DNA of 44,731 nucleotides. Source: Coriobacteriia bacterium (GTDB lineage Bacteria; Actinomycetota; Coriobacteriia; Anaerosomatales; Kmv31). The stretch is from the NCBI GenBank assembly GCA_014859305.1, contig JACUUM010000012.1, forward strand, positions 1-44,731, written 5' to 3'. Within the stretch, counting starts at the first letter, position 1; each line of letters begins with the position of its first letter. The position numbers were made by a program, and so were the translations under genes. Shown one piece after another: positions 4,107 to 32,988 of the stretch. The notes under the pieces are model-generated. The model was not told the DNA's origin, made no database searches, and saw only the letters and a list, made by a program, of their open reading frames with translations.

Positions 4107-5015
4107 CTAGCCGGCCTTCTTCTGGCTCAGCGACTTCAGCGTCCCGGACATGACCTCGATCAGGTTCGAGAAGAACTGCTCGAACTTGCCGATCTCGTCG
4201 TTCGTCCCGTCGGGCTCGAAGTGGGCGTCGAAGTCGCCGCCGGCCATGCGCAGCGACAGCTCGTGGACGGAGGCGACCATGCTGTTGAGCCTCTTGAACA
4301 TGAGCACGTCGATGAGCGCGCCCAACACCAGCGTGGCGACGAGGAGCGTGACGCCGATGACGAGCATCGTCCGGATCAGAGTGCCCTCTGCGCGGTCCGC
4401 CTGCTCTGAGATGTCCTCCACCATGTAGACGACCCCGACCGGCTTGCCCGACTCCTCCGCGATGGGGAAGACCGCGTGCGAGCGGCTCCTGCCGTCGTCG
4501 CTCCAGGAGACGGCCCAGTACGCCCCCTCCTCGTGGACGTTGTCGTGACATGTCTTGGTGCACGCGCCGTTCTCGATCCCGACGATCCTCCCGATCTCGG
4601 GAACCGTCTCGGGGGGCACCTGGAACTGCATCCTGTCGGCGGCTCTCTCGTCCGTCGCGGCGATGAGCGCGTAGGCTTCGCCCTCCTCCCAGTTGTCCGC
4701 CAGTCCGGCCTTCTCGCGGCTCGCGGCGTACGCCTCGGCGTCGGTGGCGCTCTTGTCCAGGAGCAGGCCGTACTGGGTCCCCGTGACCGCGCTCATCTTC
4801 CTCAGGGTCAACGCGACCGCCGCCGCGTCGGTGGGGTCGACCCCCTCGGAGAACTGGTCCCATGCGCCGGAGCCTTGCCGCATCGCCTTCTCGGCTGCGA
4901 CGTCCAGTCCGGCCGAGTACGAGTTGTGCAGGTGCACCGCGACGGCGATGGCGCCGAGCACGTTCACCAGCACGAGGGTTGCGAGTATCTTCGTCCGTAT
5001 CGATACGTTCTTCAT
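4107..5015 (-). CDS. Membrane HAMP protein with CX3CH haem-type sensor domain
   Basis: 302 aa. Membrane segment 1 is at about residues 9-29, an extracytoplasmic domain spans 30-212, membrane segment 2 is 213-239, and a HAMP-like linker covers 240-292. The external domain holds C152-T-K-T-C156-H157, a CX3CH motif close to the CxxCH of c-type haem. Periplasmic c-haem PAS-like sensor domains are known from Geobacter chemoreceptors, and the layout is similar. No kinase, GGDEF, phosphatase or MCP signalling domain follows the HAMP; the protein stops about 10 residues later. It could be truncated, or signal through another protein. The start is supported by GGGAGGAGGT 5 nt upstream. It lies 79 nt downstream of the multiheme cytochrome gene, which suggests redox sensing for that pathway. 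Confidence 0.8.
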   Translation of the reverse strand: MKNVSIRTKILATLVLVNVLGAIAVAVHLHNSYSAGLDVAAEKAMRQGSGAWDQFSEGVDPTDAAAVALTLRKMSAVTGTQYGLLLDKSATDAEAYAASREKAGLADNWEEGEAYALIAATDERAADRMQFQVPPETVPEIGRIVGIENGACTKTCHDNVHEEGAYWAVSWSDDGRSRSHAVFPIAEESGKPVGVVYMVEDISEQADRAEGTLIRTMLVIGVTLLVATLVLGALIDVLMFKRLNSMVASVHELSLRMAGGDFDAHFEPDGTNDEIGKFEQFFSNLIEVMSGTLKSLSQKKAG

Positions 5016-5094
5016 CGCTGACCTCCTCCCGGCCGAACCGCGCCGGCCGCCTTCTCCTGCATCATCGCCCCTCCCGGCACTCCCCTTCCGGTCC

Positions 5095-8000
5095 CTACGG
5101 CCAGTACTCCGCATCCGGAATGTCCTGCGGCTCGGGATGCCGCGCCGGGGTGTGGTTCTCGTAGCACCCGCCCGTGGCGCACGAGCCGGACCGCAGGTCC
5201 GCGTGCGAGTTGAAGCTGCGCAGGACGATGCCTACGAGCCCGTCGTGACCCTCGCGCACGTAGGGGTACTCGTCGGGCTCGACGCCGTCGGTCGTCTCGA
5301 CGGTGCGCGCGAGCAGGCGCGGCCGCTTCCACGCGTGCGGGATGCGCACGTGGCAGTCGATGCATTTGGCGCCCCAGTGCCGCGGGTCGGGAGCGTCGTA
5401 GGGATGCCCTCTGTAGGTGGCGTGGCGCCCGTGCAGCGAGTGACCGCCAGGCACCAGCCCGTCGCCGGCCTGGATCGGGTGGCACTTGAAGCAGACAACG
5501 CGCTCCGTTCCGGTAGCGTAGAACTGGTGAGCTTCCGTCGTCGGGTTCGCGTACTCGGTCTGGCTGTACTCGGGATCGATGTAGACGCGCACGGTCGCGC
5601 CCTGCGGGCCGCGCGCCTCCTCGGGCATGAGGTGGCAGTCGTCGCAGCGGATCGTGATACCGCGGATCGACTCGGGACTGGAGACGGCGTCCGGCGCGAA
5701 GGGTTCCGGCCTCAGCCAGGTCGTCGAGCCGCTGTTGGGCGGGAGCGCCCACACGTACGCCGAGCCGTTCACCACGAATTCGCTGAGCGGGAAGCTCTTG
5801 GTGTCCGGCACCCCCGCGAGCGCGCCGGGCAGCACGTTGTGTCCGCCGCCGGTCGGACCCGAGAGGGCCGCCCTCCACTCCGAGAGCGGGTCGGCCCACA
5901 CCTTGCCGGACGGCAGCGGATCGACCGAGGAGACCTGCTTGTGCGGCGAGGCCACCGCGCCGGGACCGTCCACCGCCGTACCGCTGGCGTGACAGGCGAC
6001 GCAGCGTGCGTCGCTGCCCGCGATGGCCGCGCGGACGGCCGGCAGCCCGGCGTAGCGACCCGTGCCGGGGTCGTCGGCGTTGTAGTGGCAGACACGGCAG
6101 TGGTTGACCCCGCCGCCCTCGAGCGTGCCGCCGGCGAGCTGGCGCATGTGCTCGTAGATGAGACTCGTCTGGTGACAGCCGAAGCAGCCCTCGTTGCCGC
6201 CGGGCCCGTAGGTCACTCCATCGACGACGCCCGTCCGGTCGGCGGAGTGGTCCACGAAGTGGTTGCGCGCCCAGTACCCGGCGTGACACCCCTCGGCACC
6301 GTCGCTGCCGCCGCAGCTCATCAGGCGGGTGGCGCCGGCGTCGTGGCAGCCCGCTATCACGCATCCCTTCTCGGCGTGCAGCTCCCTCACGTCGGTGTAC
6401 GGGTGGCAGCCGGAGACCGCGCACGCACCCTTCTCGACGACGCCGTCGGGCGCGCGCTCGACGGCGGCATGGATGGCGTCGACGTCCTTGTGGCCCGTGA
6501 GGGCGGAGTACCCGGAATGGCAACTCGTGGCCGCGTCCATCCCGCCGCATCCGGTGACTCCCCGTCCTCGGATGTCGCCCGAGGACGCATGGCAGCCGCG
6601 GACCGTGCAGCCGAAGCGCTCGTGTACCCGCCTGAGGGCGGCGGTGTCGTGGCAGCCCGACCGCACGCATGCCCCCTTCTCCGGAGTACCGTCGAGCCGC
6701 AGTTCGATGCCCCCATGCACCGAGTCGACTCGGCCATGGGGCGCCGCCGCGGCGGTTCCGTCATGGCAGGCCGCGCAGGCACGCGAAGTGGAGCGTGCCG
6801 ACCAGTCCCCCTTGACGACGCTGGCCGAGGCGAGGTTGCGGTTGTGGCACCACCGGCACGTGCCGCCAGCGGGGAAGCCGGTGTTGGGGCGGGCGTGCTC
6901 GACGCCGAGCCGCATCGAGTGGCAGGCTCCGCATGCCGTGGAGACGCCCGTCTCCGGGTCCCGGTACCGCGCGTCCCGCTGCCGCCTGCCCGCCCGGTGG
7001 TGGGAGTCGTCCGAACCGTCGGCGCGCCCGCCGGCCCCGTCGTGCACGGATCGCTTCGGATCGTACGCCCCGGCCGCGTCGTGACAGTCACGTCCCTGCC
7101 CGCACGACTTCGCGCCGGGGTCGTAGGACCGGTTGCCCCCCGACGATGTGCGGTCGTGGCAGCGCAGGCACCCCTCGTGCAGCCCTCCGTCCACCCTAGG
7201 CGAACCGATGTCGTTCAGCGCGCCGGTCGGATGGCAGCCCGGGCCCGTGTCGGCGCAGCCATCGCTGCGCTCAGCGGCGTGCAACGCCGCCATGTCGCCG
7301 GTGTGCGCCGCGTCGAGCCCTTCTCGCCCGTGACAAGCCTCGCAGGACCGCTGCGAGTCGCGCAGCTCCCAGTCGTCGGCGACCGCCTCCAGCGAGGCCG
7401 GGTGGTTGTGACAGTTGCGGCAGACGTCGTCGGGTGCCGTGCTCTTGGCCGACGTGGGCCGCGCGTGCTCGTCCACGAGGCTGCGACCGTCGGGCGCCAT
7501 CACGTGGCACCTTCCGCACGGTATCCCGAAGGACGAAGCGTCCGCCGAGGGACCGTCCGTCTCGGGCGAGTGGACCTCGCGGTCGTGCTCGTGACTGAAG
7601 GTGCCCGGCTCGCGGCTGCCGTGGCAAGCGCCTGCGTCGGCGGACCCGCACGACCGCGCCGTCGGCTGGTGCGACTCCACCTCGAAGTCGTGGCAGCCCG
7701 GCTCCCCGTCGGCCGCCGACCCCGAGCAGCTCTCCGGCGCGTCGGGGTGAGCTGCGTGCAGATCCTCCGAGTCGTGGCAGCCCGGCCCGCTGGCGGCGCA
7801 GCCCTCCGAGCCTGTCGCCTCCACCGAACCTGCGACCTCGGCCCCGTGCATCGGAGAGGACGTGCCGATGGCATGGCAGTCCTCGCAGCGCCTGCCCTTC
7901 CAGTCCGAGAGCACCTCGGCCAGTCCCCGGGAGCGGACGTCGTTGTGGCACTCGCCGCACCCGACGTCCGGGCCGTACTCGCTTCCGGGCACCACGGGGA

Positions 8001-8535
8001 CTCCGGTGTGAGCCTCGAGCAGGTCGCGGGAGTGACACTGCCCGCAGGTGGCGGCCGCTTCGCCCTCGGCGGCGGTGCGGACCTCTTGGTCGAAGTCCGT
8101 TCCCGTCGCCGTGTGCGTGGTCTCGCCATAGTGGCCGCGCGGGTACGGGTCGCTCAGGCGGACGCAGTCCGAGACGCCTTCCCTGCTGCCGTCGTGGCAC
8201 TCGACGCACTCGCTGGCTTTCGGCGAATGGCACGGGATGCAGCCGACTCCCTGGTAGTCGTGGCATCTCGTGCACTTCGCGTCGGGGTGGTACGCGTTGA
8301 AGTCGGCGTAGTCGCGATCCTCGCCGTGACACCCCTGCCCCGAGTTCGTGCAGCCGCTCTCCTTGACGGGGTCGTAGTCGCTGACCGCGCTGAAGGAGTG
8401 GACCTTGGCGGTGGGCGGGTTCCACACCATGGCGAAACCGAGCGCCAGTACCCCGGAGAGCGCGAAGAGGGCGTAACCCGCCTTCTTGCGGCTCGCAGGC
8501 CTCTGTCGGGGCGGCGATGGCGGCCGCGTCTCCAT
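5095..8535 (-). CDS. Large membrane-anchored multiheme c-type cytochrome
   Basis: 1146 aa. An N-terminal anchor (about residues 18-39, preceded by R-K-K) suggests it is tethered outside the membrane. I count 19 canonical CxxCH haem sites (first C88-x-x-C-H, last C1058-x-x-C-H) and 12 further CXnCH motifs with longer spacing: four CX4CH, one CX5CH, three CX6CH, one CX7CH, two CX8CH and one CX10CH. If all bind haem the total is 31. Many isolated His residues could be distal ligands. Residues about 604-683 and 686-763 are an internal repeat. Residues 850-963 lack haem motifs and may form a separate domain. A role in moving electrons across the envelope to or from an external partner is inferred. 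The ATG overlaps the stop of the upstream 67-aa gene (TGATG), implying translational coupling. Confidence 0.9.
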   Translation of the reverse strand: METRPPSPPRQRPASRKKAGYALFALSGVLALGFAMVWNPPTAKVHSFSAVSDYDPVKESGCTNSGQGCHGEDRDYADFNAYHPDAKCTRCHDYQGVGCIPCHSPKASECVECHDGSREGVSDCVRLSDPYPRGHYGETTHTATGTDFDQEVRTAAEGEAAATCGQCHSRDLLEAHTGVPVVPGSEYGPDVGCGECHNDVRSRGLAEVLSDWKGRRCEDCHAIGTSSPMHGAEVAGSVEATGSEGCAASGPGCHDSEDLHAAHPDAPESCSGSAADGEPGCHDFEVESHQPTARSCGSADAGACHGSREPGTFSHEHDREVHSPETDGPSADASSFGIPCGRCHVMAPDGRSLVDEHARPTSAKSTAPDDVCRNCHNHPASLEAVADDWELRDSQRSCEACHGREGLDAAHTGDMAALHAAERSDGCADTGPGCHPTGALNDIGSPRVDGGLHEGCLRCHDRTSSGGNRSYDPGAKSCGQGRDCHDAAGAYDPKRSVHDGAGGRADGSDDSHHRAGRRQRDARYRDPETGVSTACGACHSMRLGVEHARPNTGFPAGGTCRWCHNRNLASASVVKGDWSARSTSRACAACHDGTAAAAPHGRVDSVHGGIELRLDGTPEKGACVRSGCHDTAALRRVHERFGCTVRGCHASSGDIRGRGVTGCGGMDAATSCHSGYSALTGHKDVDAIHAAVERAPDGVVEKGACAVSGCHPYTDVRELHAEKGCVIAGCHDAGATRLMSCGGSDGAEGCHAGYWARNHFVDHSADRTGVVDGVTYGPGGNEGCFGCHQTSLIYEHMRQLAGGTLEGGGVNHCRVCHYNADDPGTGRYAGLPAVRAAIAGSDARCVACHASGTAVDGPGAVASPHKQVSSVDPLPSGKVWADPLSEWRAALSGPTGGGHNVLPGALAGVPDTKSFPLSEFVVNGSAYVWALPPNSGSTTWLRPEPFAPDAVSSPESIRGITIRCDDCHLMPEEARGPQGATVRVYIDPEYSQTEYANPTTEAHQFYATGTERVVCFKCHPIQAGDGLVPGGHSLHGRHATYRGHPYDAPDPRHWGAKCIDCHVRIPHAWKRPRLLARTVETTDGVEPDEYPYVREGHDGLVGIVLRSFNSHADLRSGSCATGGCYENHTPARHPEPQDIPDAEYWP

Positions 8536-12031: not shown

Positions 12032-12218
12032 GGGAAGGACTCCAGGTGACGTCACCGGCCAACGGCCGGATGTGTTCTCGCTTCCACGGCATCGGCAGCC
12101 AATGGCGTGCCGGGACGTCCTCGGCTGGGGATGACAGCGGCGGCACTCCCGGCGGAGGATGCCGTATCATCCGCTCCGTATCGGGTCCGCGAGACCGACG
12201 GGGAGCGGGAGGCGAAGG

Positions 12219-13460
12219 ATGCCGGCAGGTCGTCCGTTCGAGGACGTGCGCGTCGAGGGGCACCTGATCGACTCGGGTATCGTCTCGCACATCATGGACG
12301 ACATCATGGACCTGGAGGGCGAGTTCGAGACGCTGCGCTTCGACGTCGGCCGCACCAACGAGGACACCTCGGTAGCGGAGTTGCGGGTCTTCGGCAAGGA
12401 CGAGACCCACCTGGCCGGCATCCTGATCGCCATCCAGGAACACGGCGCGGTGCCCCTCGACCCCGGGGACGCCGTGCTTCAGCCGGCGCCTGCCGACGGC
12501 GTCTTCCCCGACGACTTCTACTCCACCACCAACCTCGAGACGTTCGTACGCCTCAGCGGCCGGTGGGTGCGCGTCGCGTACCCCGAGATGGACCTTGGCG
12601 TACGCGTCGACACCGGCGCGGGCATGGCCGAGGGCGTGCCGATGGGGGCGGTACGGGCAGGCGACCTGTTCGTGGTCGGCCGGCAGGGCCTGCGCGTGGC
12701 GCCCAACGAGAGACCGCGCGAGAGCCAGGCGTTCGAGTTCATGGGGTCGGAGGTCTCCTCGGAGAAGCCGAAGGCCTACATCGTCCGCGAGGTGGCCCGC
12801 GTGCTGCGCGACGTGCGGGGCGAAGGGCGGGACGTCATCGCCGTGGCGGGCCCGGCGGTCGTGCACACCGGCGCCGCCGGGCACCTCGCCCGCCTGGTGG
12901 AGCTCGGCTACGTCAGCGTGCTCTTCGGTGGCAACGCCGTGGCGGTCCACGACATCGAGTGGGCGCTGTACGGGACGTCGCTGGGCGTGCTGCTGGAAGA
13001 GGGCCTGCCGGTACCCGGAGGGCACGAGCACCACCTGAGGGCCGTCAACACGATACGCAGGCACGGCGGCATCCGGCAGGCCGTGGAGGCCGGCGTGCTC
13101 ACGAAGGGACTCATGCACACGCTCGTCGCGACCGGCACGCCGTTCGTGCTCGCCGGCTCGATACGCGACGACGGGCCGCTGCCGGAGGTGATCACCGACG
13201 CCATCGAGGCGCAGGAGGCGATGCGCCGCCACGCGCGCGAAGCCGGCGCGTGCCTCATGCTCTCCACGATGCTGCACTCCATCGCGACGGGCAACATGCT
13301 GCCCGCCTCCGTCCACACGGTATGCGTCGACATCAACCCGGCGGTCGTCACCAAGCTCGCCGACCGCGGCTCCTGGCAGACCATGGGGGTGGTGACCGAC
13401 GTCGGTCTGTTCCTCGAGCAGCTCGCCGAGGAGCTGCGCGGTCGGTCTCCGATGCCCTGA
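12219..13460 (+). CDS. TIGR00300-family ornithine cyclodeaminase-type protein
   Basis: 413 aa. The N-terminal third (about 5-110) is the LOR/SDH-type conserved domain (G-H-L-I-D-S-G, D-I-M-D-L-E-G-E-F, R-T-N-E-D-T-S-x-A). The remainder (about 165-405) has F-M-G-S-E-V-S-S-E-K, V-A-G-P-A-V-V-H-T-G, L-F-G-G-N-A-V-A-V-H-D-I-E and a final V-C-V-D-I-N-P-A-V-V-T-K-L. This is the TIGR00300 family, which includes an archaeal ornithine cyclodeaminase and the proline-forming C-terminal half of cyanobacterial AgrE. Ornithine to proline plus ammonia, using NAD, is the likely reaction. GGGAGG precedes the ATG. Arginine deiminase is encoded convergently just beyond, consistent with arginine/ornithine catabolism, though ornithine carbamoyltransferase is not in the window. 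Confidence 0.8.
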   Translation: MPAGRPFEDVRVEGHLIDSGIVSHIMDDIMDLEGEFETLRFDVGRTNEDTSVAELRVFGKDETHLAGILIAIQEHGAVPLDPGDAVLQPAPADGVFPDDFYSTTNLETFVRLSGRWVRVAYPEMDLGVRVDTGAGMAEGVPMGAVRAGDLFVVGRQGLRVAPNERPRESQAFEFMGSEVSSEKPKAYIVREVARVLRDVRGEGRDVIAVAGPAVVHTGAAGHLARLVELGYVSVLFGGNAVAVHDIEWALYGTSLGVLLEEGLPVPGGHEHHLRAVNTIRRHGGIRQAVEAGVLTKGLMHTLVATGTPFVLAGSIRDDGPLPEVITDAIEAQEAMRRHAREAGACLMLSTMLHSIATGNMLPASVHTVCVDINPAVVTKLADRGSWQTMGVVTDVGLFLEQLAEELRGRSPMP

Positions 13461-20996: not shown

Positions 20997-22604
20997 CTAG
21001 AGTCCGAACAGCTGGAACAGCAGCGTGCCCCCTCCTATGAGCACGCTGACCGCCATCGCCCACACCAGTGTGTACTTCAGCACGTCTCCCTCCCGGCCGC
21101 TTATCTGAGCGGTGCTCGTCCCGAGCACGACGTTGGCCGGCGCGATGGAGTTGCCCACCGCCGCGCCGGACATCTGCCCGGACAGCACGGCGGCCTCGCT
21201 CAGCCCCGCCGCGGCGGCGGTCTGCTGCTGCAGCGGCGTGAACAGGATGTTCGACGCGGTGTTCGACGATGTCATGAAGGCGCCCAGCACGCCGATGAGG
21301 TTGGCGAGGAAGGCGTACACCAGCGGGGGCGAGATCGCCGCTATCCCCAGCGCCAGCAGCTCGACCATGCCGGCGTGCTCCATGACCTTCGACAGCGCGA
21401 GGAAGCCCATCACCGCGATGCTGGCCGGAAGCGCGTTCTCGACGGTACCGGCCAGGATGTCGCGCAGCGAGGCGTCCCGATACGCTTCGCGCGACCTGAA
21501 GAAGAGATAGCCGAGGACGGCGGCGAGCAGCAGGAACGTCCCGGGATGGCTGAAGACGGCGAACTCCCCGTACATCTCGTCGGCCTCGGTGACGAACCCG
21601 AGCCCCGTCCGGACCTCGGGGTAGGCGAACCCGACCTGGACGCGCTCGAGGAGCTCGTTGACCGGCGGGATCAGCAGCCCCGCCAGCGTCAGGGCGATGA
21701 GCGCGAAGTAAGGGGTGAGGGCCACCGGCAGGCTCATCCGCGCCTCGCCCGGCCTCTCGTCCTTGGTCTCGAACCCCTCCCGCAGGATGTCGCTGCGCAG
21801 CGGGTCCTCCTGGAAGTGCGGCAGCCGCTCGACCGCGAGGATCACGCCGAGTGCCAGCGTCGCGGGGATGAAGTTGGCGATGATCGGGTTCAGGCCGGCC
21901 AGCAGCGCCTGGCCGCCGCCGTGGACCAGCGAGACGGCCAGGACGGCGGGCCAGGCGCGTGCCAGCGCCTTGCCGCGACCGTAGAGCCACACGATGGTCA
22001 GCCCCGCGAGCAGGTTCGGGATCCACAGCAGCACCGCGGATCCCACGGCGGTGGCGGTCTGGGCCTCTATCTCCGCCACTCGTAGCGCTGCCAGCCATGC
22101 CACCGCCAGCGTGCCGAACAGGTTCGCCCACGCATGGCCGATGAGCGGGATCACGACCGCCATCAGCGGCCGCACCCCGATCCCCACCAGCAACGGAGCG
22201 ACGATCGCGATCGGCGTGCCGAAGCCGGCGATGCCCTGCATGAACGACGCGAACACCCAGCCGAACGCGAGCACGAGCAGCAGCTTGCTGTCGGTGTAGC
22301 GCTCGGCTCCGACCCGGAACGCATCGAACGCGCCGGCCTTGTCCGTCACCTCGTACAGCAGCAGCGCCGTCCACACCACGTACAGGATGAACACGGCGTC
22401 CCACAGCCCCTTGGCCGTGGCGACGCTGATCGGCTCGAACCCGGCCCTGAACACGAGCCACGCCACGCCGGCCGCGATGAAGAAGCCCGCCGCGCCCGCT
22501 TGCGCGGCCGTCCAGCGCAAGCCGACCAGCAGCACCAGGATCGCGGCCAGCGGCAACGCGGCGAGAAGCCAGTTGAGGGCACTGACCTCTATGTCGGCAT
22601 CCAT
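20997..22604 (-). CDS. lldP: L-lactate permease family transporter (copy 1)
   Basis: 535 aa, 12 or more membrane spans throughout. LldP-family blocks are clear: L-R-W-T-A-A-Q-A-G, S-K-L-L-L-V-L-A-F-G-W-V-F-A-S-F, G-I-A-G-F-G-T-P-I-A-I-V-A-P-L, M-T-S-S-N-T-A-S-N near residue 430 and A-P-A-N-V-V-L-G near 490. It should co-transport lactate (or glycolate) with H+. It is strongly similar along its whole length to the gene at 22913-24514. It lies 40 nt after the 72-aa membrane protein gene. GAGGGGGG precedes the ATG. Confidence 0.92.
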   Translation of the reverse strand: MDADIEVSALNWLLAALPLAAILVLLVGLRWTAAQAGAAGFFIAAGVAWLVFRAGFEPISVATAKGLWDAVFILYVVWTALLLYEVTDKAGAFDAFRVGAERYTDSKLLLVLAFGWVFASFMQGIAGFGTPIAIVAPLLVGIGVRPLMAVVIPLIGHAWANLFGTLAVAWLAALRVAEIEAQTATAVGSAVLLWIPNLLAGLTIVWLYGRGKALARAWPAVLAVSLVHGGGQALLAGLNPIIANFIPATLALGVILAVERLPHFQEDPLRSDILREGFETKDERPGEARMSLPVALTPYFALIALTLAGLLIPPVNELLERVQVGFAYPEVRTGLGFVTEADEMYGEFAVFSHPGTFLLLAAVLGYLFFRSREAYRDASLRDILAGTVENALPASIAVMGFLALSKVMEHAGMVELLALGIAAISPPLVYAFLANLIGVLGAFMTSSNTASNILFTPLQQQTAAAAGLSEAAVLSGQMSGAAVGNSIAPANVVLGTSTAQISGREGDVLKYTLVWAMAVSVLIGGGTLLFQLFGL

Positions 22605-22644
22605 GGACCCCCCTCGGGCCTCGGCGCGCCGCTACTCCGCGCCG

Positions 22645-22863
22645 CTACTCCTCGTCGCCCTCCTCGCCCTCCTCCTCGCCCTCCTCCTCGGGCAGCGCGA
22701 AGCGCGCGACCGGGGGGATGAGGAAGCCGAGGACCACCATGCCCATGCCCGCCCACGCGAGTCCTTCGGCCTCCCGCGTCCCGTACGTCAGCAAGGGGAA
22801 GGCGAGCAGTACCAGCAGGAACGCGATCCCCTGCCATACCGTCTGGTTCTTGATCCGATCCAT
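22645..22863 (-). CDS. Small membrane protein between two lactate permeases
   Basis: 72 aa with two membrane segments (about residues 10-28 and 34-56) and a very acidic tail of Glu, Gly and Asp. I do not recognise a family. It is placed 49 nt after one permease and 40 nt before the other, with GGAGGG 7 nt before its ATG, so it is a true gene and likely co-transcribed. An accessory subunit of one or both permeases is an inference from position only. Confidence 0.7.
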   Translation of the reverse strand: MDRIKNQTVWQGIAFLLVLLAFPLLTYGTREAEGLAWAGMGMVVLGFLIPPVARFALPEEEGEEEGEEGDEE

Positions 22864-22912
22864 GGGAGAGCCCTCCTCGGAGTAAGGTCCTCGGCTCGCT
22901 GAGGCGAGCGGC

Positions 22913-24514
22913 TCACAGGAGCAGGAACACCAGGATCGTGAGCGCGCCGACGACGACGGAAGCCGCCAGCGCGTAAGGCAGCGTGTACTTGAGCACCTCG
23001 CCCTCCTGGCCGACGATCTTGGCGGTGCCCGTGCCGAGCACGACGTTCGCCGGCGCGATCGCGTTGCCGATGGCGCCGCCGACGGACTGCGCGCCTATGA
23101 TCGTGGACTCCTGCAGGGCCGTGGCGACGGCGGTCTGCTGCTGCAGCGGCGCGAACAGGATGTTCGACGCGGTGTTCGACGAGGTCATGAACGCGCCCAG
23201 CACACCGATGAAGTTGGCGAGGAACGCGTAGACGACCGGCGGGGAGACCTCCGCGATGCCCAGCGCCAACACCGTGACCATCCCCGAGTTGTCCATGAGC
23301 TTGGACAGCGTCAGGAACCCGAGGATCGCCACGCTCGCGGGCAGCGCGTTGCCTGCGGTGCCTGCGAGGATCCGTCGGACGGAACCGCGTTCGTACAGAC
23401 CCTTGGCTCGGAACACCGCATAGCCGACCGCGGTGGCCAGCAGCAGCATCAGGCCTGGGTGCGTGAGCGGCTCGACCTCGCCGTAGGCCTCCTCGGCCTC
23501 CTGCTCCACCCCGAACCCGGTCTCGACCGCGGGGAAGGCGGGACCGACCTGCACCTGCTCGAGCGCCTCGTTCACGGGAGGGATCACGAGCGCGATCACC
23601 GACACCGCGATCAGGATGTAGTAGGGCAGCATGGCGAGGTGGACGGAGAACTTCGGCGCTTCCTCTGCCCTCTCCTCGGCCCGTTCCTCGGCGAGGATGT
23701 AGGACTCGAACTCCTCCTCCTTCTGGTAGCGGCCCATCCTGGCGAGCAGGAAGATCGCGCCCAGCGCCAGGGTGGCGGGGATGAAGTTGCTGATGATGGG
23801 GTCGACGGCGGCCAGGGCGACCTGCCCCCCGCCGTGGATGAGCGTCACGACGGCGATCACCGGCGCGGCGTGCGCGAGGGCCTTCCCCCGGCCATAGAGC
23901 CACGCGATGGTCAGCGCGGAGAGCAGGTTGGGCACCCACAGCATGACCGCCGTGACCACGGCCGTCTGGGTGGGGTCGTCCAGTTCGATGACCTGGATCG
24001 TGGCCAGCCAGCCGACCGCGAGGGTGCCGAACATGTTCGCCCACGCGTGGCCGATGAGCGGCACCACGACCGCCATCAGCGGTCTCACGCCGATCCCGAC
24101 CAGCAACGGAGCCACGATCGCGATGGGAGCGCCGAAGCCCGCGATACCCTGGAGGAACGAGGCGAACACCCAACCGAAGGCGAGCACGAGCAGCAGCTTG
24201 CTCTTGGTGTAGCTCTCCATGCTGTCGCGGAAGACGTCGAAGGCGCCGGCGCGCTCGATCATCTCGTAGAGCAGCAGAGCGGGCCACACCACCGCCAGGA
24301 TGAAGATCGCGTCCCAGATGCCCTTGCCGGTGGCCACGGCGAGGGTCTGGAAGTCCGCGCGGAACACGAGCCACGCGAGCACGGCGGCCACGAAGAACCC
24401 CGCCGCTCCCGCCTGCGCCGCCGTCCAGCGCAGCCAGACGAGCAGCACGAGCAGCGTCGCCAGCGGTACGAGCGCGACGAGCCAGTAGCCGACCGTGATC
24501 GGCACGCCGTCCAC
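22913..24514 (-). CDS. lldP: L-lactate permease family transporter (copy 2)
   Basis: 533 aa, a paralogue of the adjacent permease with the same blocks (L-R-W-T-A-A-Q-A-G, F-G-W-V-F-A-S-F-L-Q-G-I-A-G-F-G, S-S-N-T-A-S-N, A-P-A-N-V-V-L-G). An acidic loop rich in E-E-R-A-E-E (about residues 265-285) is longer than in copy 1. The start is set at GTG 24514 because its N-terminus then aligns with copy 1; an upstream ATG at 24562 and GTGs between them are alternatives. It is the promoter-proximal gene of the permease-72aa-permease set, suggesting duplication followed by divergence in substrate or expression. Confidence 0.9.
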   Translation of the reverse strand: MDGVPITVGYWLVALVPLATLLVLLVWLRWTAAQAGAAGFFVAAVLAWLVFRADFQTLAVATGKGIWDAIFILAVVWPALLLYEMIERAGAFDVFRDSMESYTKSKLLLVLAFGWVFASFLQGIAGFGAPIAIVAPLLVGIGVRPLMAVVVPLIGHAWANMFGTLAVGWLATIQVIELDDPTQTAVVTAVMLWVPNLLSALTIAWLYGRGKALAHAAPVIAVVTLIHGGGQVALAAVDPIISNFIPATLALGAIFLLARMGRYQKEEEFESYILAEERAEERAEEAPKFSVHLAMLPYYILIAVSVIALVIPPVNEALEQVQVGPAFPAVETGFGVEQEAEEAYGEVEPLTHPGLMLLLATAVGYAVFRAKGLYERGSVRRILAGTAGNALPASVAILGFLTLSKLMDNSGMVTVLALGIAEVSPPVVYAFLANFIGVLGAFMTSSNTASNILFAPLQQQTAVATALQESTIIGAQSVGGAIGNAIAPANVVLGTGTAKIVGQEGEVLKYTLPYALAASVVVGALTILVFLLL

Positions 24515-24616
24515 CGTCACCACCCCCCGGCATCGGCTGAGGACGGGGCTACATTCCCTCATCGCCGTCGAGGGAACCCGGGAAGGGGGCGGATCCGCGC
24601 TCCGGGACGGCCGCCT

Positions 24617-26049: not shown

Positions 26050-29000
26050 CTACTCGTCGGGCTTCGAACCCGTCCAGCGAACGCACATCACGACGGTGTC
26101 GTCGCGAAGCGAGCCCCCGCAGAACTCGAGGACCTCGGCCAGGAGCCTCCCGGGCAGGTCCTCGAGCGGTGCGTTCCGCAGCTCGTCCAGGGCGGTCACC
26201 AGGCGGTCCTCGCCGAACATCTCTCCGTCTCGCCGCGCCTCGGTGATGCCGTCCGTGTAGAGCACGAGCGTCTCGCCGGGAATCAGCTCGGAGTCGCTGG
26301 AGGCGTAGCGCGTCTCGCCGAACGCCCCCACCGGCCCGGCGCCCGACTCCTCCAGGACCTCGAGCCGCTCCGCGCCGAGCACGATCCCGGAGGGGTGGGC
26401 CGCTCCGCAGTAGCGGAGCCGCCCCGAGTGCCTGTCGAGCACGACGAGGAAGACGGTCGCGAAGGCCTCCACAGGGGAGGAGCGATAGAGGAGGCGGTTG
26501 AGCTGCTCGAGGACCTCGCCGGGGTCCGGCCGCTGGTACGAGTAGGCCCTGATCCCGTCGCGCACGAGAGACGTGAGGCGAGCCGCCTCGAGCCCCTTGC
26601 CCGAGACGTCGCCGATCACGATGCCGACGCGATCGGCGTCGATGGGGAACACGTCGTAGAGGTCACCCCCGACGTTCGCGGTGCTCGAAGCCGGCCGGTA
26701 GAGGTAGGAGACCTCGATCCCCTCCGCCTGTTCGGGGGGTGTCAGGACGGCTTCCTGCAGCGTGTCGGCGATCGTACGCTCGCGCTCGTACAGCAGCGCG
26801 TTGTCCAGGGCCAGCGAGACGACGTCGGCGAGCCGCGACGCGAACTCCGTCTCCGGGTCGGTGAAGGTCGCGGGCGACCCTCGGTGCCCGAACCACGCCA
26901 CGCCGACGACGTCGCCCTGGGCGATGAGCGGGACGGCCATCAGCGACCGCAGGCCGGGCGGCTCGGCCGGCCGGCTGCCCCCGAGCGGGGGCTTCTCCAC
27001 GTCGCCTACGGCGACCGGACGGCGCTCCCGGACCGCCAGCTCCACAACCGGCACCCCTTCCTCGCCGAGGACCGTACCGACGGCGGGCCCTCCGTCCCCC
27101 GACACCGCGTGGACGACCCACCCGTCCGGCCGTCGCACGGCCACGCACCCGCACTCGGCCCGCACCGCGCGCCGGGCCCGCTCGATCATCGCGCGCAGGA
27201 TCTCCCCGGTGTCCAGTGTGGCGGACATAGCCGCCTGTAGGCCGTTGAGCTCCTCGTTCAGCTCCTGCCGGCGGACCTGTTCGGTCACGTCCTCCGTGAC
27301 CACGACGATCTGCCCGACCCGGCCCGCGTCGTCGGCCAGCGGGATGGCGTCCACGCGCACCGTCGCGCGGCTGCCGTCGAACCGCTCGATGTCGATCACT
27401 TCCTCCACGCGCTCCCCCGTCGCGACCACCCGCGGGGCGGGCCACTCGTGCGCCAGGACGGGCTCGCCCGTGTCCCGGTGGAAGCCCTTGTAGACGCGAT
27501 AGCCTTCGATGTCGGCGGCCTTGGGCAGTTCCCCGGCCCAGATCCGGTTCGTCGCCTCGTTGATGTCGAGCACGGCGCCGTCCGGTCCCAGCAGGCTGAA
27601 GCCGATGGGGATCGTGTCGATGATCGTGCGAAGGCGTGAACGCTCGGACTCCGCTTCGTTCCTGGACTCGATGTGCTGCAGCCCGAGGGAGGCGATGGAG
27701 GCGAGCTGCCGCAGCAGGACCTCGTCCTCGGGCGTGAAGTCGCCTTCCTTGTCCGAGAGCATGATCATGCCGACGGGGCGTCCTTCCGTGTCGGAGAGTC
27801 GCGCGCCCAGGAGCCCGCGCAGCGGGACGTGCCCTTCGGGCAGCCCCCGCCAGCGCGGGTGCGCTCGCAGCCGCTCCTCGGTCAGGCGGAGGGACTCGAC
27901 GCTCTCGACCAGCTCCAGGTACGTCCCGCCCCGCTCCACGGCGAACTCGGCGCCCTCCATGCAGGGGGGCGCGTCCTCGGCGCGCGACACCACGCCCAGG
28001 CGGAAATCGTCCTGCTCGTAACCGTGCCCCGCCACGGCGAGCCTCGCTCCCACGAGTTGCCGGGCGGCGTCGGCCACCCGCCGGAGCATGTCCTCCGTGT
28101 CGCCGGCGGCCAGCACGTCGGTCGACACCTCCAGCAGCGTGACGAGGCGGAACAGATACTCCTCCCGCTGCGCCTCGGCATCCTTCCGCTCGGTGACGTC
28201 CTGCACGGTGCCGAACCCGCCGAGCAGCTCGCCGGCCTCGTCCAACTCGAGCTCGGCCTGCTCGCGGACCCACTTGACGGCGCCGCCGACGACGATGCGG
28301 TGCTCCACGTCGTAGGGCTCGCCCTTCAGCGCCGCCTCCCACCTCTCGTCGACCAGCTGCCGGTCCTCCGGGTGGACGGTCGAGAGGAACTTCTCGTAGG
28401 TCATGGGCGTGCCGAGGGGGATGCCGAACATTCGGTGCGTCTCCTCGGACCACGTCAGCTCGTCGCGGCGGGTGTCCAGTCGCCAGCTCCCGACCTTCGC
28501 GACGGCCTGCGCCCGGTTCAGGTCCTCGACGGCCCCCCGGAGCTCCTTCTGCGCCTCTCTCAGCCTGTCTTCCGCCTTCTTGCGGGACATCGCAGTGGCA
28601 GTCTGATCGGCCACCACCCGCATCAATCCGAGCTCTTCGTTGCCGAGACTGGTGCGGTCGCGGCTGCCGAAGGAGAGCGTCCCGATCGTCTTGCCGTGGT
28701 GGACGAGAGGGTGGCAGGCGTAGGCCTGGACACCGAGCGATCTCACCAGTTCCGTTCTCTCGTCCTGACTGTTCTGGACGTCCTCCGCGACGATGCGCAC
28801 CCCGTCCTTGGCGACGCAGCCGCATACGCCCACGCCGAGGTCGAGGTACGCGATCTCCTCCGCGACCTCCTCCGGCACCCCGGCGTAGGCGTTGAGGTGC
28901 AACCGCCCGTCACCGTCTTCGATCACGTAGTTGAAGAAGACGTCGCAGTCCAGCGATCGCATCACTTCCTCGGCGATCGCCTGCACCATGCTCTCCGGCG

Positions 29001-32000
29001 CCTCCGTCATCAGCAGCAGGCGTGCTGACTCCGCCAGGAGCCGGATCCGGACCGTCGTATCGGCGAGGGCCTCTTCGGCGCGCTTGCGCTCCGTGATGTC
29101 GTCGAAGACGGTCACGAACCGCCTCTCCTCGGGCCTGTAGACCGAGACCGAGTACCACTTGTCGAGCGCCTGCGAGTACCGCTCGAACCGGATCGGCTCG
29201 CCGGTGAGCGCGACACGCCCGTAGGTGCCGATCCAGTCGGCGGGGTCGTCTGCGATCCCGGGCATGACCTCGGTCACCCGCTTGCCGGCGATGTCGGCCG
29301 CCTTCAGGCCTGTGAGTTTCTCGAACGCCTCGTTGACCTCGAGGAAGATGTAGTCCACGGGCTCCCCGTCCTCGTCCAGCACGACCTCGTGCAGCGCGAA
29401 GCCGTCGATGAGGTTGGTGAAGAGGTAGCGGTACTTCGCCTCGCTCTCGCGCACGGCCTCATAGAGCCGCGCGTTCGTGAGGGCCAGCGACATCGCCCGG
29501 GCCATCTGCTCGCAGAACCGGGCGTCCTCGGCATGGAACCGCCGAGGAGCGTCGTAGGCGAACGCGAGCACGCCGACGACCTCCTCGCCGACCCTCAACG
29601 GCATGAGCTGGAACGCCCGGAGCTCGTAGGGGACGACGAAGTCCTTGTTCGTCCGCGGATCGCTCCAGTTGTCCTCGATGAGCACCGGGCGCCGCTCGCG
29701 AGCCGCCAGCGCGAACGCCGGGAAGAACGAAGCGGGCTTGGACCGGCCGAGAAGGCCGTCGGCGACGTTGCGCGCGTGGGTGACCGTGAACGTGTCGCCC
29801 GCGATTCCGATGACCAGGCACTTGTCCGCCCCGGCCACCTCGGACACCTCGCCGACGAGGCGGGCGAGCACGTCGTCGGGGGTGAGGGCGGCCATCAGGA
29901 TCTCGTTCACCTTGTTGAGCGCCCTGGCGGTGCGCGCCGCCCGGCGCTCGTCCTCCAGCAGCCGCGCGTTCTCCAGCGCGAGCGAGACCGACGCGGCCAG
30001 CCTCCGGATGAAGTCGACCTCCGCGGCGTTGAAGCGGCGCGGGCCCCTCGTGGACAGCAGGAGGATGCACCCCGTGACGTCGGCGCGCACGACCAGTGGA
30101 GCCGCCAGCACCGCGCGGATCTCGCGGGAACGCAGGTAGCCCGCGTTCACCTCGTCGTCGGCGGCGATGTCGCCAACCGCCACCGGCTCCCTCGTCCGGG
30201 CGGTCCGGGCCGCGACCGGCGCCTCGGAGTCTGCCAGACGCCTCCCGACGTCCTTCGAGCGCAACCCGTTCTGGTACCGGACGACCCACTCCCCGCCGTC
30301 ACGGATCTCGATCGCCCCGACGTCCATGCCCAGTGCGCGCACCCCGTCGTCCAGCGCGTGCCGCATGATCTCGTCGAACTGGAGCTTGGAGGAGATGTCG
30401 GCGTCGATGTCGTTCAGTGCCGCGGCGAGGCGGGCGCGGTACTCGACCCGGTCCAGGCTGCGTCTGAGCTCGTCGACGTCGATGAAACCGAGGACGGCCC
30501 CCTTCACGTTCCCTGCCGAAGACCGGTAGGGCAGGATGCGCAGCGAGTACCAGCGCCCGGCGTCGTCGCGTATCTCGCGCGTCTCGGGGAAACCGCCCTG
30601 GATCACCCTCCGCACGACCTGCTCCATGTCCGGCATGTCCACGCGCATGCGCAGGTGGTGCAGGAGGCGTCCCTCGTCGGAGGAGGCGACGTGCATGACG
30701 CGGACCGCCTGGGACGTGAAGCGGCGTACGCGCAGCTCCGAGTCGACCATCACGACGGGGATGTCCGTGCTCGCCGCGAAGTTGGTCAGGTCGTCGTTGA
30801 GCCGGGCGAGATCCGAGTTGCGGTTGCGGAGCTCCTCGTTGACGGTCGACAGCTCCTCGTTGGCGGACTGGAGCTCCTCCTTGGCGGTCTCGAGCTCCTC
30901 GTTGATGCTCTGGAGCTCCTCGTTGCTCGAGCGCACCTCCTCGTTCGCGGCCCGCAGCGCGTGGTTCGCGTTGTCCTTCTCCTCCGAGATCGAGCGCGTG
31001 CGTGCGCGCAGAGCGGCCAGCTCTCGCCTCAGGCGCTCCTCTCTCGCCTCGTAGAGGTTCGCGATCTCGGCGCCGACCTCGGCCGGTTCCATCCCGGCGG
31101 CTGTGGGCGGCAGCTCCAGGAACGCGACGAGGAAGTGCGTCGAACCCGCGACCGACGCGAGCGGCAGCACCTGGATGGCGACGCGGCGCTGCCGGCCCTC
31201 CACGGTGAACGAGGCCTCCCTTCTCGCCGGGGCGTTCGTCTCGCGAGCGGCCTCGAACGCGTCTTTGACCTCCAGCGCGAGCTCGAGCCGCGCCATCTGG
31301 AGGAGGTCGAGCGTGGCCCGCCCCTCAGCGAGGGTCATGAAGGGCGCCGTGTCGCCGAAGAAGTGCAGGATGTGGCCCTCGGCGTCCACCACCGCCCGCG
31401 GAGGGCCGAACGCCGCCAGGGTCAGCTCGTCCGCCTCCGCGACGACGTCGAGGCCGGGCGGGCGTTCCCCGATCGCCTCCGCCGCGCTCAACGCGTCCAA
31501 GGAGACCCGCAGCGGGCTCATCACGTCGATCGGCAGGTGGGGCGGCACGTCCTTGCGCCGGTAGACGTGGCGCTGCTTGTCGAAGCTGGAGAACAACCCG
31601 CGCTGGCTGTCCGGCGTCTCGGAGGTACCGAGCACGAGGAACCCCTGCGGCGCCAACGCGAAGTGCGCGATGGCGAGCACCTTCTTCTGCAGCGCGGGCT
31701 CGAAGTAGATGAGGAGGTTGCGCATGCTGACGAGGTCCAGCCGCGAGAACGGCGTGTCGCGCGTGATGTCCTGCCGGGCGAAGATGCACATCTCGCGCAA
31801 GGGCCTGACCACCCGCAGGCCGCCTTCGACGCGCTCGAAGAAGCGCGCCGCCCTCTCCGGCGACACGGAAGCGCAGATGCTGTCCGGGTACACGCCCTCG
31901 CGCGCCGCGCGTATGGCGGTCTCGCTCGCGTCGGTGCCGAAGACCGTGACCTTCGGCTCCGCCTCGGCCTCATCGAGCGCCTCCAGGAGCGTGATGAGGA

Positions 32001-32988
32001 TGCTGTAGACCTCTTCGCCGGTGGAGCAGCCGGGCACCCAGACGCGGACGGCGTCGCCCGAAGCCTTGGCTCTCAGCACCTCCGGGAAGACGCGCTCGCG
32101 CAACAGCTCGAACACCTCGGGATCGCGGAAGAACTGGGTGACGTTGATCAGCAGGTCGCGGACGAGCGCGTCCAGCTCGGCGGGCTCCGCGCGCAGGACG
32201 TCGAGGTAGGCTTCGAGACTCTCCACGTTCCGCAGCATCGCACGCCGCCCCATGCGCCTTCGCACCGTCGAGGGCTTGTACTGCGAGAAGTCCATCCCCG
32301 CCTCGCGCAACACCAGGGTCAGCACCTCGGTGAAGGCCCGCTCGTCCTCGGCTTGCTCCATGACGTCGCGCAGGTGCGGGTGCGCCGAGCGCGCGTGGAG
32401 CTGCTCGGCGATCTCCTCGGGCGAGCCGACGAAGTCCGCCGCGCGCGCCGCGATCGCCGCTCGCGGCATCGGGTCGAACTCGGCGGTATCGGGAAGCTGC
32501 ACGAAGGTGAGGCCGCCTGCGGCCGCCACCTCCCGCAGGCCCTGGACGCCGTCGGAGCCCATGCCGGAGAGCAGGACCGCGCACGCCCCCGACTGCTCGT
32601 GCAGCGCCAGCGAGGTGAAGAACGTGTCGATCGGCTGAACGGCGCACTCGTCGTCCCTCGAGCGCAGATGGAAGACGCCCTCCTCCATCGTCGCCAGCCG
32701 GCCCTCGGGGATGATGTAGACGTTCCCCGAGGCGGGTGCGAGGCCGTCCTCGGCGAACCGCACCGGCAATGCGATGACGTCGGCCAGCAGGTCGACGAGG
32801 TGCGTCGGCCGGTCGGGGTCGAGGTGCTGCACGAGCACGAACGAGAACGGGGACTCGGCCCGGACCGCGCCCAGCAGGCGCCGGAACGCGTCGAGGCCGC
32901 CGGCCGACGCCCCTACGCCCACGATCGGACAGGACGAGAGCCGGTCTCTCGCCCGGGATCTCTTCCGGGATGGGCGGCTGCCGCTCAC
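26050..32988 (-). CDS. Giant CheB-CheR-PAS/GAF-SpoIIE signalling protein
   Basis: 2312 aa, soluble, no membrane span. CheB methylesterase domain about 20-205 with the triad S28 (G-A-S-A-G-G), H55 and D146 (G-M-G-S-D-G). CheR methyltransferase about 215-480 with G-C-S-T-G-E-E (320-326) and M-R-N-L-L-I-Y-F. PAS-like 515-625. A coiled coil 640-735 with repeated E-E-L heptads. PAS 735-845, GAF 865-1012, GAF 1025-1175, PAS 1183-1303, GAF 1315-1470, PAS 1495-1603, GAF 1610-1775, PAS 1785-1903, GAF 1912-2068. SpoIIE/PP2C 2080-2310 with G-G-D-L-Y-D, G-D-V-S-G-K-G, Y-T-D-G-I-T-E and D-D-T-V-V. CheB-CheR-PAS proteins usually end in a histidine kinase; here the output is a phosphatase and there is no receiver domain. 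GTG start after GGAAGG. Confidence 0.9.
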   Translation of the reverse strand: MSGSRPSRKRSRARDRLSSCPIVGVGASAGGLDAFRRLLGAVRAESPFSFVLVQHLDPDRPTHLVDLLADVIALPVRFAEDGLAPASGNVYIIPEGRLATMEEGVFHLRSRDDECAVQPIDTFFTSLALHEQSGACAVLLSGMGSDGVQGLREVAAAGGLTFVQLPDTAEFDPMPRAAIAARAADFVGSPEEIAEQLHARSAHPHLRDVMEQAEDERAFTEVLTLVLREAGMDFSQYKPSTVRRRMGRRAMLRNVESLEAYLDVLRAEPAELDALVRDLLINVTQFFRDPEVFELLRERVFPEVLRAKASGDAVRVWVPGCSTGEEVYSILITLLEALDEAEAEPKVTVFGTDASETAIRAAREGVYPDSICASVSPERAARFFERVEGGLRVVRPLREMCIFARQDITRDTPFSRLDLVSMRNLLIYFEPALQKKVLAIAHFALAPQGFLVLGTSETPDSQRGLFSSFDKQRHVYRRKDVPPHLPIDVMSPLRVSLDALSAAEAIGERPPGLDVVAEADELTLAAFGPPRAVVDAEGHILHFFGDTAPFMTLAEGRATLDLLQMARLELALEVKDAFEAARETNAPARREASFTVEGRQRRVAIQVLPLASVAGSTHFLVAFLELPPTAAGMEPAEVGAEIANLYEAREERLRRELAALRARTRSISEEKDNANHALRAANEEVRSSNEELQSINEELETAKEELQSANEELSTVNEELRNRNSDLARLNDDLTNFAASTDIPVVMVDSELRVRRFTSQAVRVMHVASSDEGRLLHHLRMRVDMPDMEQVVRRVIQGGFPETREIRDDAGRWYSLRILPYRSSAGNVKGAVLGFIDVDELRRSLDRVEYRARLAAALNDIDADISSKLQFDEIMRHALDDGVRALGMDVGAIEIRDGGEWVVRYQNGLRSKDVGRRLADSEAPVAARTARTREPVAVGDIAADDEVNAGYLRSREIRAVLAAPLVVRADVTGCILLLSTRGPRRFNAAEVDFIRRLAASVSLALENARLLEDERRAARTARALNKVNEILMAALTPDDVLARLVGEVSEVAGADKCLVIGIAGDTFTVTHARNVADGLLGRSKPASFFPAFALAARERRPVLIEDNWSDPRTNKDFVVPYELRAFQLMPLRVGEEVVGVLAFAYDAPRRFHAEDARFCEQMARAMSLALTNARLYEAVRESEAKYRYLFTNLIDGFALHEVVLDEDGEPVDYIFLEVNEAFEKLTGLKAADIAGKRVTEVMPGIADDPADWIGTYGRVALTGEPIRFERYSQALDKWYSVSVYRPEERRFVTVFDDITERKRAEEALADTTVRIRLLAESARLLLMTEAPESMVQAIAEEVMRSLDCDVFFNYVIEDGDGRLHLNAYAGVPEEVAEEIAYLDLGVGVCGCVAKDGVRIVAEDVQNSQDERTELVRSLGVQAYACHPLVHHGKTIGTLSFGSRDRTSLGNEELGLMRVVADQTATAMSRKKAEDRLREAQKELRGAVEDLNRAQAVAKVGSWRLDTRRDELTWSEETHRMFGIPLGTPMTYEKFLSTVHPEDRQLVDERWEAALKGEPYDVEHRIVVGGAVKWVREQAELELDEAGELLGGFGTVQDVTERKDAEAQREEYLFRLVTLLEVSTDVLAAGDTEDMLRRVADAARQLVGARLAVAGHGYEQDDFRLGVVSRAEDAPPCMEGAEFAVERGGTYLELVESVESLRLTEERLRAHPRWRGLPEGHVPLRGLLGARLSDTEGRPVGMIMLSDKEGDFTPEDEVLLRQLASIASLGLQHIESRNEAESERSRLRTIIDTIPIGFSLLGPDGAVLDINEATNRIWAGELPKAADIEGYRVYKGFHRDTGEPVLAHEWPAPRVVATGERVEEVIDIERFDGSRATVRVDAIPLADDAGRVGQIVVVTEDVTEQVRRQELNEELNGLQAAMSATLDTGEILRAMIERARRAVRAECGCVAVRRPDGWVVHAVSGDGGPAVGTVLGEEGVPVVELAVRERRPVAVGDVEKPPLGGSRPAEPPGLRSLMAVPLIAQGDVVGVAWFGHRGSPATFTDPETEFASRLADVVSLALDNALLYERERTIADTLQEAVLTPPEQAEGIEVSYLYRPASSTANVGGDLYDVFPIDADRVGIVIGDVSGKGLEAARLTSLVRDGIRAYSYQRPDPGEVLEQLNRLLYRSSPVEAFATVFLVVLDRHSGRLRYCGAAHPSGIVLGAERLEVLEESGAGPVGAFGETRYASSDSELIPGETLVLYTDGITEARRDGEMFGEDRLVTALDELRNAPLEDLPGRLLAEVLEFCGGSLRDDTVVMCVRWTGSKPDE

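What the first reader, a model, noticed from the sequence alone, without database searches (positions are those of the whole stretch)
5095..8535. Multiheme cytochrome with up to 31 CXnCH motifs, 12 of them with 4-10 residue spacing
Beside 19 CxxCH sites, the protein has CX4CH (4), CX5CH (1), CX6CH (3), CX7CH (1), CX8CH (2) and CX10CH (1). Longer-spaced haem motifs are known only in a few families (for example CX4CH in some NapB/multiheme proteins, CX15-17CH in NrfA-like and MccA enzymes). The shared GC...GCH context of many of them suggests a family-wide feature rather than chance. If they carry haem, this is an unusually dense cytochrome; if not, they may be disulphides or metal sites in a novel arrangement.
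Basis: partly seen in the sequence, partly recalled or inferred. Interest (0 to 1): 0.75.

Follow-up and report, generated by a model that had tools for sequence, protein, structure and literature searches.

The report
Multihaem cytochrome with stretched haem motifs
This gene encodes a membrane-anchored protein predicted to hold about 31 haems in a row, 12 of them on haem-attachment motifs stretched to 4-10 residues, built from a repeated three-haem module found so far only in one order of anaerobic actinobacteria, most likely to carry electrons out through the cell wall.

Summary
Window 8535..5095, minus strand, encodes 1146 aa with 31 CXnCH motifs: 19 CxxCH and 12 with n = 4 (4), 5 (1), 6 (3), 7 (1), 8 (2), 10 (1); shuffling gives about 4 "CH". 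The long motifs very probably bind haem c. In relatives from at least 14 genera, both Cys and the His of every long motif are invariant. 95% of all Cys in 53 related ORFs sit in CXnCH. Conserved non-motif His are about as numerous as motifs. Spacing drifts at equivalent sites, including to or from CxxCH: X10 = X4 = X2 at one site of homologous modules, X5-X7, X8-X9 and X2-X4 between orthologues. The long motifs form a recurring tri-haem module (90 copies aligned): three CXnCH plus three extra conserved His, a confident AlphaFold2 fold (pLDDT 81), no usable Pfam match, no PDB match, found only in this order, probably Anaerosomatales (OPB41). It builds homologues with up to 108 motifs. Best reading: a membrane-anchored electron wire across a monoderm wall, matured by a CcmH-less Ccm system with a CxxxY CcmE. 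Haem occupancy is not shown experimentally.

The parts
5095..8535 (-). Multihaem c-type cytochrome, 1146 aa, 31 CXnCH motifs
   Evidence: ORF and motif count; relatives in 26 of 41 same-order genomes
8416..8484 (-). Single N-terminal hydrophobic helix (aa 18-40), likely signal-anchor; the rest extracytoplasmic
   Evidence: sequence RKKAGYALFALSGVLALGFAMVW; AF2 helix 17-38 is among the better-scored stretches; hydrophobic stretch kept in all N-terminal rows of A2
8176..8400 (-). N-terminal four-motif segment (CX6CH then three CxxCH)
   Evidence: C, C, H 15/15 conserved; self-aligns with the CX6/CX10 module, E 1.2e-9
7870..8076 (-). CxxCH triad 1 (Cytochrome_C7-like, PF14522)
   Evidence: Pfam E 1.2e-10
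7570..7800 (-). Long-spaced triad A: CX6CH, CX10CH, CX7CH
   Evidence: C, C, H 15/15 at all three; third spacer 5/6/7 among orthologues
7330..7518 (-). CxxCH triad 2
7042..7257 (-). Mixed triad B: CX6CH, CX2CH, CX5CH; homologous to triad A with X2 in place of X10
   Evidence: hhalign A-B E 7e-14; self-BLAST E 1.8e-18
6763..6933 (-). CxxCH triad 3
6517..6738 (-). Long-spaced triad D1: CX4CH, CX4CH, CX8CH with His600, His607, His638
   Evidence: C, C, H and extra His invariant
6283..6492 (-). Long-spaced triad D2: CX4CH, CX4CH, CX8CH with His682, His689, His720; 42% identical to D1
   Evidence: AF2 of this module pLDDT 81, pTM 0.69
5989..6186 (-). CxxCH triad 4 (its first motif is CX3CH in L021 and CX4CH in L022)
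5332..5964 (-). C-terminal three-CxxCH domain, shared with other cytochromes of the order
   Evidence: (many hits to query about 918-1146)
5152..5181 (-). Decayed 32nd motif CATGGCY (CX4CH in L024, L026, L027, L029)
4107..5114 (-). Conserved partner gene: TM - extracytoplasmic domain with CX3CH - TM - short HAMP; overlaps the cytochrome gene by 20 nt
   Evidence: found at the orthologous loci except L025, L030 and L031, where the contig or fragment ends inside the cytochrome gene; Cys, Cys, His of CX3CH and His25 invariant in 13 sequences; weak HAMP match in 11 of 13

Best explanation
A membrane-anchored, extracytoplasmic c-type cytochrome that binds about 31 haems, one at each CXnCH including the 12 long-spaced ones, each haem having the motif His and one further conserved His as axial ligands. 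It is a chain of tri-haem modules: CxxCH triads (cytochrome c7-like) joined to a second tri-haem module in which the residues between the two haem-bound Cys form loops of 2-10 residues. The chain most likely passes electrons from the membrane outward through the thick wall of a monoderm, anaerobic actinobacterium to a surface acceptor. The co-encoded CX3CH-HAMP membrane protein is probably its redox sensor or membrane-side partner. Haem is probably attached by the genome's CcmH-less Ccm system (CcmB, C, E of CxxxY type, F), with CcsBA also present. Shown by sequence: motif conservation, Cys and His budget, spacer exchange at equivalent sites, module homology, gene pairing, maturation genes. 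Inferred: haem occupancy, bis-His ligation, conduction, localisation and acceptor.
For: Every long motif keeps Cys, Cys and His in all rows that cover it, while 15% of other residues are fully conserved. 3350 of 3522 Cys in 53 related ORFs lie in CXnCH; a 4305-aa relative has 216 Cys for 108 motifs. Outside the motifs, 29 of 43 His are fully conserved and 34 at 85% or more, about one per motif; per module three extra His are conserved at 89/90, 78/90 and 88/90. Spacers change at equivalent sites: X5/6/7, X8/9 and X2/3/4 between orthologues, X2/4/5/10 between homologous modules, and X10 to X2 within this protein. The module folds confidently in AF2. Ccm and Ccs genes are present; CcmE has CPSKY and CcmH was not found. 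Cultured Anaerosomatales carry 17-18 multihaem cytochromes and one strain respires Fe(III) (PMC9686372).
Against: No haem was measured. AF2 of the whole chain is unusable (pLDDT 37), so pocket geometry and haem spacing were not tested, and the coordinates of the module model could not be examined. The module has no PDB match by sequence or fold. No electron-transfer phenotype is known for any member. No gene pairing singles out an extracellular acceptor.
Confidence: 0.72

Rival explanations
1. Only the CxxCH and CX4CH sites (23) carry haem; the CX5-CX10 cysteine pairs are structural disulphides or bind another metal.
For: CX5-CX10 attachment is little documented; the full-length model gives no geometry.
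Against: The His after the second Cys is invariant at every long site, which a disulphide does not need; the same site is CxxCH or CX4CH in homologous modules; three extra conserved His per module, one for each motif.
Confidence: 0.1
2. The 31 haems are bound, but the protein is mainly a cell-surface terminal reductase or an electron store rather than a conduit through the wall.
For: Several sister proteins are much larger, with up to 108 motifs; a C-terminal three-haem domain is shared with other cytochromes of the order.
Against: N-terminal membrane anchor and linear repeat architecture with variable module number suit a length-tuned conduit.
Confidence: 0.25
3. The long motifs are decaying haem sites that no longer bind haem.
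For: One real decayed site exists (CX4CY at 1119-1125).
Against: Conservation of Cys, Cys and His is complete across genera; [4,4,9] modules have multiplied to six copies in L063, the opposite of decay.
Confidence: 0.03

Closest known systems
Cytochrome c7 / class III (c3) multihaem cytochromes (PF14522, PF02085)
   Same: Small tri- or tetra-haem modules with CxxCH and separate distal His; c3 mixes CX2CH and CX4CH (own knowledge); the CxxCH triad at 160-221 matches PF14522
   Different: Long modules have no usable Pfam match (best single-module E 0.002 to a family of unknown function; Cytochrome_C7 0.017) and use spacers up to X10 at all three sites
OmcZ of Geobacter (CX14CH at haem 1)
   Same: Extra residues between the two haem Cys form a loop; haem still bound (PMC9473688)
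   Different: One such site of eight; no detectable homology to the module
MccA / SirA sulphite reductases (CX15CH)
   Same: Long-spaced haem site accepted by a Ccm or Ccs synthase (PMC6976685)
   Different: Single catalytic site with a dedicated lyase; here many repeated sites and no obvious dedicated lyase gene beside the cytochrome
Large ANME S-layer multihaem cytochromes
   Same: Very long haem chains proposed to cross the outer layer (up to 86 motifs, PMC9012536)
   Different: Archaeal, with S-layer domain; no such domain was seen in this family, which uses long-spaced triads
Thermincola CwcA/OcwA wall-crossing cytochromes
   Same: Gram-positive route of multihaem cytochromes across peptidoglycan (PMC7911101)
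   Different: 6-10 CXXCH haems per protein, spread over several proteins

Membership tests
c-type multihaem cytochrome | Several CXnCH motifs, far above chance | tested here: met
   31 vs 4.3 expected CH
c-type multihaem cytochrome | Extracytoplasmic location | tested here: met
   N-terminal positively charged stretch plus one hydrophobic helix; sequence inference only
c-type multihaem cytochrome | Cytochrome c maturation genes in the genome | tested here: met
   CcmB, CcmC-like, CcmE, CcmF, ResB, CcsA
c-type multihaem cytochrome | Covalent haem at each motif | not testable with these tools
   needs protein
Cytochrome c7 (PF14522), CxxCH triads | Match above the curated cut-off | tested here: met
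   41.5 bits vs 24.8 at 160-221
Cytochrome c7 (PF14522), long-spaced triads | Match above the curated cut-off | tested here: not met
   best of 45 modules E 0.017
Cytochrome c3 (PF02085) | Four-haem fold with two CX2CH and two CX4CH | tested here: not met
   tri-haem modules; best E 0.41
OmcZ/OmcS/OmcE filament cytochromes | Sequence or fold relationship | tested here: not met
   no such hit in PDB by profile or Foldseek; filament formation not tested
MccA/SirA | One CX15CH catalytic site among CxxCH | tested here: not met
   longest spacer is 10 and twelve long sites are present

The most novel reading that the evidence does not exclude
A previously undescribed tri-haem c-type cytochrome module in which the spacing between the two haem-bound cysteines is not fixed but evolves between 2 and 10 residues at equivalent sites, used as a repeat to build chains of 22 to more than 100 haems in one order of monoderm bacteria and matured by a CcmH-less Ccm system that tolerates any of these spacings.
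Probability: 0.6. Interest if true: 0.75.

Novelty: new variant of a known kind. Interest (0 to 1): 0.62.

Why it matters
CXXCH searches undercount haems in these proteins by about a third (19 of 31 here; 68 of 108 in the largest relative), so the electron-transfer capacity of a subsurface lineage is being underestimated. A module in which one haem site takes 2, 4, 5 or 10 spacer residues in nature is a ready-made test of how cytochrome c synthases recognise the apoprotein, and a set of parts for building protein wires of chosen length.

Tried and rejected
AF2 of the full chain (23-row alignment): pLDDT 37, not usable. PDB profile searches of the family, the module and the partner protein: nothing credible (best is a nitrite reductase at E 0.013). 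Foldseek of the module against PDB: no match at E <= 10. Dedicated haem lyase idea: PF01578 copy number set against module presence differs only slightly between genomes with and without the module, is confounded by total cytochrome number, and was not pursued. Rejected: chance (shuffles, conservation), assembly artefact (independent orthologues), disulphides or other metal (invariant His, spacer exchange), decayed motifs (multiplying modules).

Full report
WHAT IS THERE. The gene runs on the minus strand from ATG 8535 to a stop ending at 5095 and encodes 1146 aa. The motifs come in threes: an N-terminal CX6CH and three CxxCH, then 222 | 6,10,7 | 222 | 6,2,5 | 222 | 4,4,8 | 4,4,8 | 222 | 222. 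There is one N-terminal hydrophobic helix. Pfam sees only one cytochrome c7-like triad.

RELATIVES. Related proteins occur in 26 of 41 near relatives and 43 of 69 genomes of the order. Fifteen homologues, this protein included, share the N-terminal CX6CH architecture; the others are about 40-57% identical to it over aligned parts, with different numbers of modules: some have a single long triad in the second half, while L063 has six consecutive [4,4,9] triads. Other relatives are giant ORFs, for example 3357 aa with 82 motifs and 4305 aa with 108 motifs (68 CxxCH), the latter cut by a contig end. Record titles of close relatives read Coriobacteriia, Coriobacteriales, Actinomycetes or Actinomycetota MAGs; the order is probably Anaerosomatales (OPB41), an inference that was not tested.

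DO THE LONG MOTIFS BIND HAEM? Five lines say yes. (1) In alignment A2 each long site has C, C and H in every row that covers it, with 15 rows over the CX6/CX10/CX7 triad; motif Cys are fully conserved at 58 of 61 positions and motif His at 29 of 30, against 151 of 992 other residues. (2) 95% of 3522 Cys in 53 ORFs are used in CXnCH. (3) 34 of 43 non-motif His are at least 85% conserved, about one per motif as bis-His ligation requires. (4) Spacer length drifts at equivalent sites. Among orthologues, site 296-304 is X5/6/7, site 663-672 X8/9, and site 784-787 CX2CH, CX3CH (L021) or CX4CH (L022). Among homologous modules the middle site is X2, X4, X5 or X10; profile comparison of the [6,10,n], [6,2,5], [6,4,5] and [4,4,8] classes gives E 2e-20 to 6e-7. 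Within this protein the CX10CH hexahaem stretch aligns with the stretch that has CX2CH at that place (30.5% over 167 columns, E 1.8e-18). (5) In 90 aligned modules the Cys and His of three motifs are conserved at 86/90 to 90/90 and three further His at 89, 78 and 88 of 90; where the second of these is missing (class B), a neighbouring conserved His (His453, 8/8) may replace it.

THE MODULE. AlphaFold2 on the module alignment gives pLDDT 81, pTM 0.69, which supports a real domain; Foldseek finds nothing in the PDB, and no Pfam family matches it usefully. It was found in 30 of 69 genomes of the order, in no other order of the class sample (24 of 248 positive, all same order) and in none of 395 other genomes of the phylum sample. 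Other phyla were not searched at this sensitivity.

PARTNERS AND MATURATION. Directly downstream lies a membrane protein with a CX3CH in its extracytoplasmic part and a short HAMP segment, without an output domain. It is found at the orthologous loci except L025, L030 and L031, where the contig or fragment ends inside the cytochrome gene, and its CX3CH and a membrane-edge His are invariant. In four loci a nine-haem cytochrome lies beside the gene. The genome has CcmB, CcmC-like, CcmE, CcmF and, elsewhere, ResB-CcsA beside a 43-motif cytochrome. CcmE has CPSKY instead of HxxxY and no CcmH was found. Archaea likewise lack CcmH, and CcmE of archaea and of Desulfovibrio desulfuricans is of the CxxxY type (PMC9084895). 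Desulfovibrio makes cytochrome c3 with CX4CH (own knowledge), so a relaxed synthase is plausible but unproved.

HOW IT LIKELY WORKS. Electrons enter near the membrane anchor, perhaps from the quinone pool by way of the CX3CH membrane protein or other cytochromes, and hop along the haem chain to the far end. Cultured members of the presumed order carry 17-18 multihaem cytochromes and one reduces Fe(III) (PMC9686372). Conduction, direction and acceptor are inferences.

WHAT IS NEW. Multihaem cytochromes, long-spaced haem sites (c3, OmcZ, MccA) and very large haem chains (ANME) are known. Not found in the literature searched: a repeated domain with three long-spaced, variable haem sites.

Noticed in passing
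window 4107-5114 (-): Two-TM protein with CX3CH haem motif and HAMP but no output domain, tightly linked to the cytochrome in this order; possibly a redox sensor that has lost its kinase or a membrane-side electron partner.
   Followed up: partly
L035 4675-17592 (-), L065 639-10712 (+), L073 202-9555 (+): Giant single-ORF cytochromes with 108 (contig-truncated), 82 and 80 CXnCH motifs; the first exceeds the 86 reported for the largest ANME protein in PMC9012536.
   Followed up: partly
G000 C35 (L040 3727-9273, 9924-11372, 12501-17612): Cluster of a 16-motif Ig-like cytochrome, ResB/CcsA and a 43-motif cytochrome with MtrC-like and F5/8-type C domains, in the same genome as the window.
   Followed up: partly
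G000 C38 (L075 4213-10563): ccm cluster with CcmE of CxxxY type (CPSKY), CcmF, CcmB, ABC ATPase, CcmC-like protein; CcmH not found in the genome.
   Followed up: yes
window 26050-32988 (-): 2312-aa fusion of CheB, CheR, PAS and several GAF domains and a SpoIIE phosphatase.
   Followed up: no
window 20997-24562 (-): Two tandem L-lactate permease genes.
   Followed up: no
window 12159-13460 (+): ArgZ-like/LOR-SDH type protein (Pfam ArgZ-like_C and Saccharop_dh_N).
   Followed up: no
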